Positions 881-16,385 of a stretch of DNA of 43,245 bases are shown here, one piece after another. The notes under the pieces were generated by a model. It was not told where the DNA came from. It searched no databases and saw nothing but the letters and a program-made list of their open reading frames with translations. Each line of letters begins with the position of its first letter. Position 1 is the first letter of the stretch. Origin of the DNA: a virus; the IMG/VR virus record IMGVR_UViG_3300035670_000445, positions 1-43,245 of that record, one strand, 5' to 3'. The translations under genes and the position numbers were made by a program.

Positions 881-2479
881 ATGAAACGTGTTTCTATTCA
901 GTCTCTTCTCTCTCTGGTCTCTCACCTTGAACGGTTCAGGGTTCCTGACGTGTTTGCCTTGGTGTCAGCCTATCGTCAGTTTTGTCAATTGCAGATTGCA
1001 AACCGCAATATTGCGATTGGCCTGAAGAAGGAACTGAATACTATCCTTCATGCCAGTTTGCAGCGCGTCCGGGTTGCCGATTGTGAACCCGGCAGCGGTT
1101 CAAGGTACAATAGAACGGCTGCTGAAACTCCCAGGGAAGTCAAATCTTCGCATTGGTACACCCTGGAAGTACTGGCAGGATTCCCTGACAAGTACAGGGA
1201 AATCGTAACGGAGAAGTCTGAATTGGTGAACCAAGACCTTATCCTTCTGTCTTCAATCGGTGAACGGCTGGCGAAACTTCGCAGTCGCTGCCTTGAAGTC
1301 TGGAAACCGGTTAACGCCATTCAGGCTGAATTGTTGTCTGTTCTCTCTGCTTCAATCCCGCATTGGAGGTGGAGCACCTATCGTGCGGAAAAACACCATA
1401 CCGATAATGTGCATGGGCATGCTATTGAATTGTTGGCTAAGTACTCACCTGTACTCCCAAGCCGGAAACTTAGATACAAGCGCGGCAAGCTTGAGGGCAG
1501 GGTGTCAGTTGTCAGGGGCACCGGTACACTCAATAGGGTGAGACATGCGGACTATGCTCCCGAAAAGACTCCGGCTGTGCGCTGGCAGGATATGTTTGCA
1601 GACTGTCGCAAGAGGGATGGCATGCTGTGGCGATTGGCCAATCAATTGTTTCGGCACAGCGCTATTGCCCAAGGTGTCGCACTTTGTGGCAAATCAATTT
1701 CACGTGCGGCTCACTACCTGGTTTCCAATGCTGCAGACTACGATAGACTTCCACCATACGCGTGCACTACACGAAGTGAATACTGCAAAGCGGTTGTGGC
1801 GGAATATGTTAGCAAATCCCGACACCTCAAACTTGCACCTAATCAGCCGGTCTGCAGTCCGGGTGTGGTACACCAAATCGTTCTGACGGATTGGGAACCG
1901 GTCTCTTTTGTGGGGATTGTGCCAGAACCCGATAAGGCGTCAGGAATGGGATTGGTGTCGCGACGTGTTCTGTGTCACGATTTCCGAACAGGGTTTACCC
2001 TGTATCGGGAATACGCGTTAGACTCCACAGGACAGGACAGGGAAACACTCGATATTCTTCGCAGGGTGGAAACCTATCATGAAGTCTGCAAACCGCTTGT
2101 CATGCCGAACTACGCTCGAATTGTGGAAACTCTTGGTTTCCGTTTCAGAGATCGGAAGTCTAGCATGGAATATCGTTCATACGACGGACTGACGGAGAGA
2201 GAGCGCTCCCGCAAGAAAACCGCTTCTGTACTTGTCAGACTTCGTCGAATCCCGGAAGTGAGTCTGCAGGATTCTTATTCTGCCGGAAACTGCAAACCAG
2301 GTACTTCACAGTTCTGCCGTTCTATCGGTGTCGATACTGAGAAGGTATCGGGGCGGGAATTGGCTAAGCGCTGGCAAGCTGCAGGATATCCAATGCAGCA
2401 AATCGGGTTATTCCTGGCCACAATTGCCATGGCCGAAGAGAGAAGCGGCGATAATAAAGAAGAGGTGGTATCATGCTGA
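881..2479 (+). CDS. Large protein of unknown function (532 aa)
   Basis: The longest gene of the left arm, with no family I can name. It is basic, rich in Arg, Tyr and Cys, with helical N- and C-terminal parts and no visible signal peptide or membrane span. Cysteines are scattered and I see no clear zinc ribbon, Walker or nuclease motif. The start is backed by TTTGGAG eleven bases upstream. It sits between two terminators with one overlapping small partner (2473), an autonomous two-gene unit beside the repeat-rich region at 2698-3514, so an origin-linked or replication-initiation role is conceivable but only inferred. Confidence 0.75.
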   Translation: MKRVSIQSLLSLVSHLERFRVPDVFALVSAYRQFCQLQIANRNIAIGLKKELNTILHASLQRVRVADCEPGSGSRYNRTAAETPREVKSSHWYTLEVLAGFPDKYREIVTEKSELVNQDLILLSSIGERLAKLRSRCLEVWKPVNAIQAELLSVLSASIPHWRWSTYRAEKHHTDNVHGHAIELLAKYSPVLPSRKLRYKRGKLEGRVSVVRGTGTLNRVRHADYAPEKTPAVRWQDMFADCRKRDGMLWRLANQLFRHSAIAQGVALCGKSISRAAHYLVSNAADYDRLPPYACTTRSEYCKAVVAEYVSKSRHLKLAPNQPVCSPGVVHQIVLTDWEPVSFVGIVPEPDKASGMGLVSRRVLCHDFRTGFTLYREYALDSTGQDRETLDILRRVETYHEVCKPLVMPNYARIVETLGFRFRDRKSSMEYRSYDGLTERERSRKKTASVLVRLRRIPEVSLQDSYSAGNCKPGTSQFCRSIGVDTEKVSGRELAKRWQAAGYPMQQIGLFLATIAMAEERSGDNKEEVVSC

Positions 2480-9512: not shown

Positions 9513-10785
9513 ATTGTTCCACCTTTCTGAAAGCGTCCTGAATCCAGTCATCACACTTGAGTGTTGGTATACTACGTCCTCGTTCTGGCCTGTTCTGCGT
9601 GTCATCAGCCACAAGGATCTTCAGGCTGAGCAGATCGTCAATACGCCTACCAATGGTCTCCAGTGGGATCTCAGTCAGTACTGCAATCGTTTGCCGGTTT
9701 AAAGGTTTCTGGGAAAGAGCAACAGCACGGATGACCCGGTGCTGGCGACTGTAGGAAGTGTCCAGAGCCACTTTAACGATGAGCCTGCGAATGGTAGGTG
9801 TAATGTGGTCTACGCCAAAGACGTAGCACAGGCAGTATGCCAGACGGCTTAACTGCTTCACTACACGGGTGGATGCTTCAGGCAGTGCGTCATACAACAG
9901 TTCATTGCTGCCGTATTCCCTGCTTCGAGGTGCTTGAGCACGACTGCAGGCAATCACGTCACCACAAGCCTGGATCAGTTGCTCATCCTCTTCAGTGTAT
10001 CGAGGACGAAGCAATTCACCATCACGAATGGTTGTGTGTAAGTGGCTCAGGAAGCCAGCAGTGTATGCACGTTGCTTAGGGAATGATCGGCTGTCTCCAG
10101 TGTCATTGCCCTCGTAGTTGGTCCTGTTGCTACGCTCGAAGATAGACTGGATGGCACGGACATTACGACTGCGTTCAACTTCCCTGCTGGTCTCCAGTCT
10201 GCAATGCAGGAAGCGTTCACCTAACGCTGACATGTTCAGCGAATAGATACGTTCTGTAATACCGATGACCATACCGAATGATATGTTGCTGAATGAGGCT
10301 GATACACCATTGCGGTACTCAGCATTCAATGAGCCGTCGAATATGTCACGCAGTTCGCCGTAGACGTTGGCAAGCTGTTGGGGAGTCGATTCGAGAAGCA
10401 GAGTGCCGTCTTTAATGACGACACACTTGCCCTGCAGCATAGGAATAAGGTGCTGACCCTGACGACTGCCAGATACCAGTCCTGTGAACTTACTGAGTGC
10501 CCGAGTGTGGATCTCATCCGAAGCCAGCAGTTCACAGATTGTAGACTTACCGCTTGATGAAGCACCAACAAGATACAACCACAATGGGTCTCCATCAAGT
10601 ACTACAGCAATGTGAGTGGCCATACACAAAGCCAGACAGTCCTGGAATGACTGAGTAATGGTCATGTCCTGACTGTATATTTCCATCAGCGTAGCGAATG
10701 ACTCGCAGTGCTGTGGTTGAATGCTGACCACTTCATCCATGCGAACTTCGGTAAGGTGTTGTTTGATAAGGTCGATGATGTTCAT
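9433..10785 (-). CDS. AAA+ ATPase, probable replicative helicase or helicase-like protein (450 aa)
   Basis: Walker A GASSSGKST at residues about 74-82, a Walker B-like CVVIKDGTLLL around 119-129, and a conserved ALGERF with an arginine-finger-type residue near 190. The C-terminal third (LNRQTIAVLTEIPLETIGRRIDDLL) is a winged helix. With the primase gene two genes upstream and no other helicase visible, it is the best candidate for the DNA-unwinding ATPase. The Walker B lacks the usual DE pair, so family assignment is uncertain. The C-terminus is a PKRPRPPGK tail overlapping the HNH gene. The start forms TAATG with the preceding gene. Confidence 0.75.
   Translation of the reverse strand: MNIIDLIKQHLTEVRMDEVVSIQPQHCESFATLMEIYSQDMTITQSFQDCLALCMATHIAVVLDGDPLWLYLVGASSSGKSTICELLASDEIHTRALSKFTGLVSGSRQGQHLIPMLQGKCVVIKDGTLLLESTPQQLANVYGELRDIFDGSLNAEYRNGVSASFSNISFGMVIGITERIYSLNMSALGERFLHCRLETSREVERSRNVRAIQSIFERSNRTNYEGNDTGDSRSFPKQRAYTAGFLSHLHTTIRDGELLRPRYTEEDEQLIQACGDVIACSRAQAPRSREYGSNELLYDALPEASTRVVKQLSRLAYCLCYVFGVDHITPTIRRLIVKVALDTSYSRQHRVIRAVALSQKPLNRQTIAVLTEIPLETIGRRIDDLLSLKILVADDTQNRPERGRSIPTLKCDDWIQDAFRKVEQYGKNEDRQTPRPKRPRPPGKAPSPET
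9706..9713 (+). repeat. Dispersed TTTCTGGG repeat
   Basis: GGTTTCTGGGAAAGAGC inside the helicase-like gene, where the opposite strand encodes SQK. It reads from the + strand, antisense to the gene. Confidence 0.7.
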
Positions 10786-11354
10786 TAAAGATTACCCCAT
10801 TGTTCAGCCATTGCCTCAGCAATGCCGGTGTAGGTTATGCTTCTCAGTTTGCCCCTATCTGGTGATGGGGGCATTTTCCAGATTCGTTGTTCTCTACCCT
10901 CAACAATGTTTGTTGGTGTAAGCAATGGCAGGTTCTTGAGCCACAAGCATGTTTTCTTTGTCTCACCGTGGCCAAACATCCATGGCTGGATTATCTGGTC
11001 AGGCTTCCTGTATACCCGGGACATGATGCAGACAGGATTCTCAACACATACCCGCTTGGCATTTGCATTGATGCAGTGCATGAAGAATTCGATGGCCGCT
11101 TGCTGCTCTACCTGTTTCTCTTTGAACCATCGAGCACCAGATACAGCAAGATGAGTGCATGGTGGATGAGCAATAACAAGATCCCATTTGTATCTCGGAT
11201 TTGTCAGCCACTTCAATGCGTCCCCTTGAAAGTGATGGCTTATGTACTTGGACGGTTCTGAGGGAAGTAAGTCGCATGAGTATGCGTCATGCCCACGTTT
11301 CCTGAAAGCATCACGAACAACACCACTGAATTCACACGCTACCAGAATACGCAT
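10785..11354 (-). CDS. Dcm-like DNA cytosine methyltransferase-type protein (189 aa)
   Basis: N-terminal MRILVACEFSG (SAM-binding start), HPPCTHLAVSG at residues 63-73 with the catalytic-type Pro-Pro-Cys, and CVENPV near 99-104 match the core of C5-cytosine methyltransferases. At 189 residues it is half the usual size, lacks an obvious target-recognition domain, and ends in MFGHGETKKTCLWL, a form common in short phage members. It may methylate phage DNA, or a nucleotide, or be a derived protein without that activity. The start overlaps the primase gene by 23 bases. Confidence 0.75.
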   Translation of the reverse strand: MRILVACEFSGVVRDAFRKRGHDAYSCDLLPSEPSKYISHHFQGDALKWLTNPRYKWDLVIAHPPCTHLAVSGARWFKEKQVEQQAAIEFFMHCINANAKRVCVENPVCIMSRVYRKPDQIIQPWMFGHGETKKTCLWLKNLPLLTPTNIVEGREQRIWKMPPSPDRGKLRSITYTGIAEAMAEQWGNL

Positions 11355-12111: not shown

Positions 12112-12320
12112 GTGTCCACAATCTCCTTCAATGCTGCTTCAGCGTACAGACGTGCTCTTCGGGCAAGGTGTTCAGGATGCCATTCGAGGTCACTGCGTTG
12201 TGTCAGACCTGACAAGCACGCTGCATACAAACGGTAGAACAAATCGTCTGTATCGTGCATTACAGCTTTCTTCTCCAGAGCAGGTACTTGTGGTGGCATT
12301 TGTTTTTTCTGATTGCTCAT
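12108..12320 (-). CDS. Hypothetical protein (70 aa)
   Basis: Small mostly helical protein (residues 20-70) with a Lys/Pro-rich start, linked to both neighbours by four-base ATGA overlaps. No family recognised. Its place between methyltransferase and primase suggests a minor replication-module accessory. Confidence 0.65.
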   Translation of the reverse strand: MSNQKKQMPPQVPALEKKAVMHDTDDLFYRLYAACLSGLTQRSDLEWHPEHLARRARLYAEAALKEIVDT

Positions 12321-14053
12321 TTCACTCCCTTTGCAGATTTGATACGGGTACGGGCAATAGCATAATACTCAGCATTCATCTCAATTCCGATGAAACTGAA
12401 TTCTTCAAGGACTGCGGCTTTACCTGTTGAGCCACTGCCCATGTATGGATCGAGTACAGTTCCGTTAGGTGGTGTTACCAGACGGCATAGATACCGCATG
12501 AGGTCAGTTGGTTTTACTGTTGGATGATTGTTACCTTCACCACGATCCTTCTTGCTGGATTTAGCACAGTAGAAGAATCGGGCTGCTGATCCACCGTTGT
12601 CGTTGTGTCCTCGAACACCAGATTCCTGCCCTGCAGCATGCCGAAATGTAGGTCCGTCAATGCCTTTACCTCTGTCAGTTTTCCTTGCTGGTGCTGTGCT
12701 GGGAAACAGCCCCACAACTTCGTCAGATCCGTCGTGGATGAAATTGGCGGGCCATCGGCCTTGTGTTGGGTTGTAGTGGCTCATTTCCGTTTCGGTATCC
12801 GCTGCTGCATGAAACTTACCACCACGCATAATCTTCTTTGGGGCATTTCGCGGGGCAGGCGGTTCCGTTCCCACCCGACACCCATCCACATTCAACCCGC
12901 CGGTTCCATGCTGCAGGACGTTTTCCGCCACGGTGCCGCATAGGGGCTTGCGTGCGACAACTATTGGGTCAAGGTTTGGGCTTACGTCCACGTCCTGGAA
13001 GTTTGTGCGAGCCAGCGATGTAGCACTTTCTGTTGCAGAAAGTTCGCGGGTGGCTTGCAGTGACAACAGCCAGCCGTTCAAAACCTTTCCCGCAGTGCAG
13101 GCATTCACAAGATACCCACCGGGAAGGCTGCTTGCCGCGAGCATGGACTCTGGCGTGATCGCCAACAGACAAGACTTCAAGGTTTTCCAGTCGATTATCG
13201 TGCTTGACTCCGTTGACGTGGTGGACGTGCTCGTATTGCTCCAGGCGTCTGCCAAGATGCTTTTCCATAACCACACGGTGTTCAAGCTCATACTGATCGC
13301 CGACGCGAACACTGACATACCCATCTGATCGCACAAACCGGCCTGTGTATTGATGCAGTCGTCTACAGTCCATTGAGCAGTACTTAACGCCTCTGCGAAT
13401 TCGCTTTGGCTTGACGGTGAATTCGATTTGACAGCATTGACATGTTGCAACAGCCATAGTTTCGACTCCAATCGTAAAAGGCTCGCAACTATTGTACGCC
13501 GTTCCTCTTCGGCTGGCAATGGCTTTCTCGCCCATGTCACGCTTTCCCAACTCGGCTTCAGGGCTGTGCCCCAGCCTTGCCATTGCTTTGCGGCTTCGGT
13601 TGCGGGGGCTGTGATCGTTGGATTCCCGGTGTTTGAGCCGTGATACACACCATCGTATACCACACCGGATACTCCTCGATGGTTTGGATTTTTACCAACC
13701 ACTTCCCTTTCAGCCCCAGCCGCCTTGTCAATCGCCTTGCTCACGTCCAGTGATTTCGGAAATCCACTTCCATAGCACCAGGCAATCATATCTCTGATCT
13801 CGAACCCTGCATCCTCGATCCGCACCGCCATCCGGTGTTGTGTCCGAGTGCCAGCAAATGCGAGCAGATGCCCGCCGGGTTTCAGCACCCGAAGACACTC
13901 CTGCCAAACTTCGACCGATGGAACGTCGTAGTCCCACCGCTTGCCCATGAAGGATAGACCATAGGGCGGGTCAGTAACAATAGAATCTACGCTGCAATCA
14001 GGCATACCTTTGAGGATCTTGAGACAGTCAGCGTTGTGAATAGATACTTTCAT
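12317..14053 (-). CDS. DNA adenine/N4-cytosine methyltransferase with an internal insertion (578 aa)
   Basis: Beta-class amino methyltransferase: catalytic DPPYG at residues 28-32, [12 protein letters not shown] near 57, and the SAM-binding [10 protein letters not shown] near 537. The family normally runs from [10 protein letters not shown] directly into IVVARKPL and GTVAENVL. Here about 195 residues separate GTALKPSWE (about 164) from [12 protein letters not shown] (about 359), and this insert coincides with an HNH gene in another frame. The insert reads as Ser/Thr-rich unlikely protein but has no stop, so the methyltransferase frame survives. Near-duplicate ARKPL segments flank it. Presumably protects phage DNA from host restriction or forms part of its own modification. 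Confidence 0.8.
12969..13457 (-). CDS. HNH homing-type endonuclease nested within the methyltransferase gene (162 aa)
   Basis: Zinc knuckles CQCC and CSMDC near the start, then the HNH_3-type core [42 protein letters not shown], and a second Cys cluster ([14 protein letters not shown]). It starts at the ATG behind GATTGGAGTCGAAACT. Its stop (12969-12971) falls exactly where the methyltransferase sequence resumes. It is read in a different frame on the same strand, so the insert encodes two products at once. Homing nucleases usually sit in introns or inteins or between genes; this is a frame-preserving nested insertion. Confidence 0.8.
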
Positions 14054-16303: not shown

Positions 16304-16310
16304 CGAGAAA

Positions 16311-16382
16311 TGGATCAGGCAGGAGTCGAACCTGCATTTCTGAAGCGTCAGACAGCGTGTTGGCCTTTTACACCACTGATCC
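16311..16382 (-). tRNA. tRNA-like element, amino acid not assignable
   Basis: On the minus strand, 72 nucleotides with a perfect 7-bp acceptor stem (GGATCAG with CTGATCC), A at the discriminator, a 4-bp D stem (GTGT/ACAC) with GG in the loop, and a perfect T arm GCAGG TTCGACT CCTGC. The anticodon arm is abnormal: the 16 bases between position 26 and the variable loop give only three good pairs, or a 5-bp stem with a 4-base loop, so no anticodon can be read safely. No CCA is encoded. It is either a degenerate or unusual tRNA, or a tRNA mimic. Confidence 0.55.
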
Positions 16383-16385
16383 ATA

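What the first reader, a model, noticed from the sequence alone, without database searches (positions are those of the whole stretch)
12317..14053. HNH endonuclease encoded out of frame inside a DNA methyltransferase whose own frame stays open
Seen: between GTALKPSWE and [12 protein letters not shown], adjacent in normal family members, sit about 195 codons. In another frame of the same strand this insert is a full HNH_3-type nuclease with its own ribosome site, ending exactly at the junction. The methyltransferase frame has no stop throughout, and ARKPL appears on both sides (WARKPLP and VARKPLC) with different codons, as if the insertion carried or duplicated its target. That gives a homing-type gene tolerated as an in-frame insertion rather than within an intron or intein.
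Basis: partly seen in the sequence, partly recalled or inferred. Interest (0 to 1): 0.65.

Follow-up and report, generated by a model that had tools for sequence, protein, structure and literature searches.

The report
Out-of-frame homing nuclease inside phage methyltransferase
A selfish DNA-cutting gene (an HNH nuclease with its own promoter-like and ribosome sites) sits inside a virus's DNA-methylase gene in another reading frame without breaking that gene; the arrangement was first described in 2025 as the 'ShiLan domain' of mycobacterial viruses, and this copy and its relatives show that it is more widespread and suggest how it is switched on.

Summary
A phage N6/N4 methyltransferase (MTase) gene (12317-14053, minus) carries a 576-nt insert (13543-12968) that leaves its frame open. 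In the third frame the insert encodes a 162-aa HNH_3 nuclease whose stop lies one base before the junction. This is a member of a published kind, the 'ShiLan domain' hidden HNH of mycobacteriophage methylases (PMC11855218, PMC9957025): same site, same frame offset. New here: (1) the arrangement occurs in a cyanophage and about 30 non-redundant, mostly metagenomic loci; (2) across 35 such nucleases the MTase frame has 0 stops against about 55 expected, while free-standing relatives show no avoidance (family-level evidence; the window alone gives P = 0.08); (3) selection acts on the HNH frame, the MTase-frame peptide is apparently constrained only to lack stops; (4) many copies carry a sigma-70-like promoter and a Shine-Dalgarno site, a likely answer to how the nuclease is expressed; (5) nucleases 92-99% identical sit in MTases 54-68% identical, so the element is mobile; (6) relatives hold other hidden nucleases at other sites, in either sense frame or antisense. 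No intron or intein signature was found. That the MTase is made full-length and active is inferred.

The parts
12317..14053 (-). N6/N4 DNA methyltransferase ORF, open through the insert (578 aa)
   Evidence: PF01555 E 3.8e-32; phrog_67
13544..14053 (-). native N-terminal MTase part (aa 1-170)
12968..13543 (-). 576-nt insert (192 codons of the MTase frame)
   Evidence: absent from uninterrupted relatives
13517..13543 (-). left edge SVTWARKPL, mimics the 3' host flank PIVVARKPL; conserved as protein across the family
13514..13519 (-). -35-like TTGCCA
13491..13496 (-). -10-like TACAAT, 17-nt spacer
13466..13469 (-). Shine-Dalgarno GGAG, 8 nt before ATG
12969..13457 (-). HNH_3 homing-type endonuclease gene (162 aa plus TGA), third frame relative to the MTase
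13149..13280 (-). HNH_3 domain (residues 60-103), flanked by CxxC zinc-finger-like pairs
12968..12985 (-). right edge VSPNLD, weakly mimics the 5' host flank LKPSWE (clearer in homologues, e.g. VKPNLD)
12317..12967 (-). native C-terminal MTase part ([17 protein letters not shown]... to the end)

Best explanation
A mobile HNH homing-endonuclease cassette of the ShiLan-domain kind. The cassette brings its own promoter and ribosome site, so the nuclease is made independently in its own frame (inferred from sequence). The nuclease cuts uninterrupted alleles of the methylase site, and repair copies the cassette in (inferred). The methylase frame is read straight through the cassette (inferred from the absence of stops). 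The methylase then carries an extra, apparently unconstrained loop of about 190 aa, and both insert edges restate the host sequence KPxxEPxxxARKPL, which may let each half finish its local fold. Neither RNA nor protein splicing is needed.
For: Same site, frame offset and stop position as ShiLan. HNHs scoring at least 183 on the family profile are spanned by an open MTase frame wherever the locus can show it (L014, L142, L160 and L163 lie at contig ends), while nearly all more distant ones are not. Stops in the MTase frame: 0 observed against about 55 expected for nested copies; 343 against 331 for mostly free-standing controls. Close copies differ at HNH codon positions 1/2/3 in 133/50/305 cases; in distant pairs MTase-frame identity (0.45-0.58) is about that of the unused third frame (0.42-0.53) while HNH identity is 0.70-0.75. 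Summed promoter score 264 against 209 in shuffles and Shine-Dalgarno match 4.5 against 3.3 nt. HNHs 92-99% identical sit in MTases 54-68% identical (trees). The left edge shows an MTase-frame codon signature (entropy 0.87/0.79/1.68) that ends at the KP motif. HNH model pLDDT 88, best PDB match I-HmuI.
Against: No direct evidence of cutting, homing, nuclease expression or MTase activity. The MTase model is poor (mean pLDDT 54), so tolerance of the insert is not shown structurally. The I-HmuI fold match is weak (E 0.08, probability 0.80). Several family members lack a good promoter match (L018, L020, L154, L157 among others). Homologues are related, so the combined statistics are not independent tests.
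Confidence: 0.8

Rival explanations
1. A self-splicing intron carrying the HNH gene; the MTase mRNA is restored by splicing.
For: HNH homing endonucleases are often intron-borne (own knowledge), and the edges resemble the flanks.
Against: No Rfam intron hit; fold energy of the insert is average (z 0.15); only 86 nt lie before the HNH start and 1 nt after its stop; an intron need not keep the MTase frame open, yet it is open in every homologue that can show it.
Confidence: 0.05
2. An intein-like element removed from the protein after translation.
For: The MTase frame is open, and a true intein occurs elsewhere in the same MTase family (ShiLan, L004).
Against: The MTase-frame peptide has no significant family hit and is no more conserved than the unused frame; its last residue is Asp, not Asn or Gln.
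Confidence: 0.03
3. Ribosomes bypass the insert between the two similar edges, as in phage T4 gene 60, or the two MTase halves are made separately.
For: AxKP-type motifs lie on both sides and are conserved.
Against: Bypassing needs no open frame, but stops are absent; codons at the two edges differ and the DNA there is 36% identical.
Confidence: 0.05
4. The insertion inactivates a dispensable MTase and the open frame is a leftover or a composition effect.
For: The MTase is dispensable in some phages (PMC11855218), and this single gene alone gives P 0.08.
Against: Zero stops across deep divergence and across GC 31-67%, with normal stop counts in the other frame; the left edge keeps an MTase-frame codon signature; both MTase halves stay conserved.
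Confidence: 0.07

Closest known systems
ShiLan domain / hidden HNH in mycobacteriophage methylases (Arsenault 2025 PMC11855218; Gosselin 2023 PMC9957025)
   Different: HNH only about 50% identical to the ShiLan-type ones; not in a mycobacteriophage-like genome; start is ATG with a clear ribosome site and a sigma-70-like promoter, whereas the paper saw no ribosome site and proposed leaderless GTG initiation
Cylindrospermopsis phage Cr-LKS3 'DNA methylase' (OM373202)
   Same: Same arrangement; HNH 72% identical, MTase frame open
   Different: Annotated only as DNA methylase, the hidden HNH is not annotated; MTase itself 65% identical to the window's
I-HmuI, HNH homing endonuclease (PDB 1u3e)
   Same: Top fold match, weak
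   Different: Encoded in a group I intron (own knowledge); 16% sequence identity
mobA and the bypass element of phage T4 gene 60 (own knowledge, not tested)
   Same: HNH homing gene linked to an in-gene insertion that the host tolerates
   Different: There the ribosome skips a short sequence; here the frame is open across the whole nuclease gene

Membership tests
ShiLan-domain hidden HNH element | Insert in a phage DNA methylase at the KPxxE/PxxxARKPL site | tested here: met
ShiLan-domain hidden HNH element | No stop in the MTase frame | tested here: met
[quoted passage not shown]
   TGAC here, TAAC in ShiLan
ShiLan-domain hidden HNH element | Start of insert resembles the 3' host flank as protein | tested here: met
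   SVTWARKPL vs PIVVARKPL
ShiLan-domain hidden HNH element | Spread among divergent methylases | tested here: met
   family level
ShiLan-domain hidden HNH element | Active homing (site-specific cutting and copying) | not testable with these tools
   needs biochemistry
HNH_3 (PF13392) | Profile score above gathering cut-off with conserved His-Asn-His residues | tested here: met
   40.9 vs 24.8 bits; invariant H79 H80 N88 H101
Group I or II intron | Catalytic RNA core | tested here: not met
   no Rfam match, fold z 0.15
Intein | Splicing blocks in the host frame | tested here: not met
   no significant Pfam hit in the MTase-frame insert; ends in Asp

The most novel reading that the evidence does not exclude
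Besides introns and inteins there is a third general way for a homing nuclease to live in a conserved gene: a compact cassette with its own promoter and ribosome site, coded out of frame, that keeps the host frame free of stops and restates the host sequence at both edges. It arose repeatedly in this methylase family, at several sites, in either sense frame and once antisense, with more than one nuclease family, and once inside an intein.
Probability: 0.5. Interest if true: 0.65.

Novelty: new member of a known kind. Interest (0 to 1): 0.5.

Why it matters
It shows that a recently described oddity of mycobacteriophages is widespread, that the host frame is kept open by selection rather than luck, and that many copies carry the signals to express the nuclease themselves. 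It gives a testable case of two proteins coded in one stretch of DNA where only one frame is constrained in sequence, and it warns that gene callers hide such nucleases inside 'DNA methylase' annotations.

Tried and rejected
Intron: no Rfam match and average folding energy. Intein: no significant splicing-domain hit. Chance open frame: rejected at family level, not by this gene alone. Insert as a genuine conserved MTase domain: rejected, its MTase-frame peptide is no more conserved than the unused frame. Structure prediction of the whole MTase: too low in confidence to place the duplicated strand. A profile search of the HNH family against sequences of solved structures found nothing up to E 0.1. 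Searches with the MTase-frame insert peptide found only one closest copy each.

Full report
Observation. The minus-strand ORF 14053-12317 is a DNA methyltransferase (MTase; PF01555, E 3.8e-32; phrog_67) with no internal stop. Between E170 and P363 lie 192 codons (13543-12968) that uninterrupted relatives lack; those read straight through the site, e.g. GTALKPALEPITVARKPLIGTVAENV. In the third frame the insert encodes a 162-aa HNH_3 protein (13457-12969; 40.9 bits against a cut-off of 24.8), with ribosome site GGAG 8 nt before its ATG and its TGA one base before the junction.

Prior knowledge. The arrangement is published. Gosselin et al. 2023 (PMC9957025) described the 'ShiLan domain' as a mobile insertion in mycobacteriophage methylases, and Arsenault et al. 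2025 (PMC11855218) showed that it hides an out-of-frame HNH nuclease, with no sign of intron or intein, and that phage Pacc40 has another in a different methylase. A 2025 genome announcement (PMC12613952, abstract seen) reports one more. I confirmed that ShiLan, MISSy and Pollywog have the same site and the same frame offset as the window.

Distribution. A cyanophage, Cr-LKS3, has the same arrangement with an HNH 72% identical. Scans of viral contigs and of bacterial genomes gave about 30 further non-redundant cases at the same site. HNHs scoring at least 183 against the family profile lie inside an open MTase frame, always at offset +2, wherever the locus is long enough to tell; L014, L142, L160 and L163 lie at contig ends (L014 read open), and for L163 the site could not be checked. 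Nearly all more distant HNHs are not nested; several of those that are turned out to be other hidden copies described below.

The open frame is selected. With the HNH proteins and their own codon usage held fixed, shuffling synonymous codons predicts about 55 stops in the MTase frame over 35 non-redundant nested copies (my sum of the per-copy values); none is observed, while the other frame shows 2-25 stops per copy. The control set shows 343 against 331 expected. The window alone gives P 0.08, so the claim rests on the family, whose members are related. In a close group, differences at HNH codon positions 1/2/3 are 133/50/305, and in distant pairs the MTase-frame peptide (identity 0.45-0.58) is hardly more alike than the unused frame (0.42-0.53), against 0.70-0.75 for the HNH. 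So the HNH protein is under selection, and the MTase frame of the insert seems required only to lack stops.

Expression signals. The window has TTGCCA-17-TACAAT, the best promoter-like site of its region. Upstream of the HNH start the summed promoter score over 32 loci is 264 against 209 in shuffles, with the -10 element ending 33 nt before the start in most window-like copies; L013 and L147 have perfect TTGACA and TATAAT hexamers (17 and 16 nt apart). The longest Shine-Dalgarno match averages 4.5 nt against 3.3 at other ATG/GTG codons. ShiLan-type copies have a GTG preceded by GGAGG with four nt between, at about the position where the other members start. The paper proposed a GTG 18 bp into the insert and found no ribosome site; the GTG seen here is a candidate alternative start. 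This is a proposal from sequence only.

Edges. The MTase profile matches up to position about 184 on the left side and again from about 168 on the right side in nearly all copies: the insert restates part of KPxxEPxxxARKPL at each end. In the left copy the MTase-frame codon signature is clear (entropy 0.87, 0.79, 1.68 at positions 1, 2, 3) and ends at the KP motif. At DNA level the two copies in the window are only 36% identical, so if they began as a duplication it is old or was remade by selection.

Mobility. HNHs 92-99% identical sit in MTases 54-68% identical, and most interrupted MTases are closer to an uninterrupted one than to another interrupted one. On trees the HNH distances of such pairs are 0.01-0.09 while the MTase distances are 0.7-2.6 (the uninterrupted sample is biased towards relatives of the window).

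Other hidden nucleases in the same MTase family. L005 (E. coli phage BUCT618) has an HNH_2/HNH protein at the SKAID site; L073, L149, L156, L202 and L224 (Oceanobacillus) have HNH_3-like proteins at later sites, all at offset +2; L017 and L153 have second HNH_3 genes in the other sense frame; L016 has a second, weakly classified zinc-finger-like protein at the RFF/YCAKA site; L009 has an antisense protein with weak Vsr-like similarity at DPPYG; L161 has an HNH_3 gene inside an intein homologous to ShiLan's. For most of the single +2 copies the stop counts alone are not significant; L017, L153 and L161 each show 0 stops where 6-7.5 are expected.

Structure. The HNH model is good (pLDDT 88) and its best PDB match is I-HmuI, weak by E-value. 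The MTase model is poor, with the insert mostly at pLDDT 30-54, so structural tolerance is not shown.

Conclusion. This is a ShiLan-type, frame-preserving homing cassette; membership is supported by every sequence feature that could be tested. Expression, cutting, homing and activity of the interrupted MTase are inferred.

Noticed in passing
L161:1239-2162 and 1588-2085 (+): An MTase intein homologous to ShiLan's (C-terminal 36 aa 72% identical) carries an out-of-frame HNH_3 gene (+1 frame) between its splicing parts, with the intein frame open (0 stops, 6 expected).
   Followed up: partly
L009:1457-2254 (-): Antisense 266-aa protein with weak Vsr/PvuRts1I-like similarity inside an MTase insertion at the DPPYG motif, the MTase frame staying open.
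   Followed up: partly
L005:3396-3998 (+), E. coli phage BUCT618: A different HNH protein (HNH_2/HNH) hidden at offset +2 in an MTase at another site; annotated only as methyltransferase.
   Followed up: partly
L017:1885-2538, L153:3301-3882 (+): MTases with a second hidden HNH_3 gene in the other sense frame at a second site.
   Followed up: partly
L016:3919-4323 (+): Second out-of-frame ORF at the RFF/YCAKA site, zinc-finger-like, with edge repeats of the host motif; only a sub-threshold Pfam hit.
   Followed up: partly
L191:1986-3497 (+): An HNH_3-like gene spanned by an open frame of 504 aa with no Pfam, PHROG or phage match (0 stops, 3.3 expected); the host ORF may not be a real gene.
   Followed up: partly
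window 16310-16383 (-): tRNA-like gene that ARAGORN reports with a four-base anticodon (gacg).
   Followed up: no
window 10785-11354 (-): A second, different DNA methyltransferase (phrog_757) a few genes downstream of the interrupted one.
   Followed up: no
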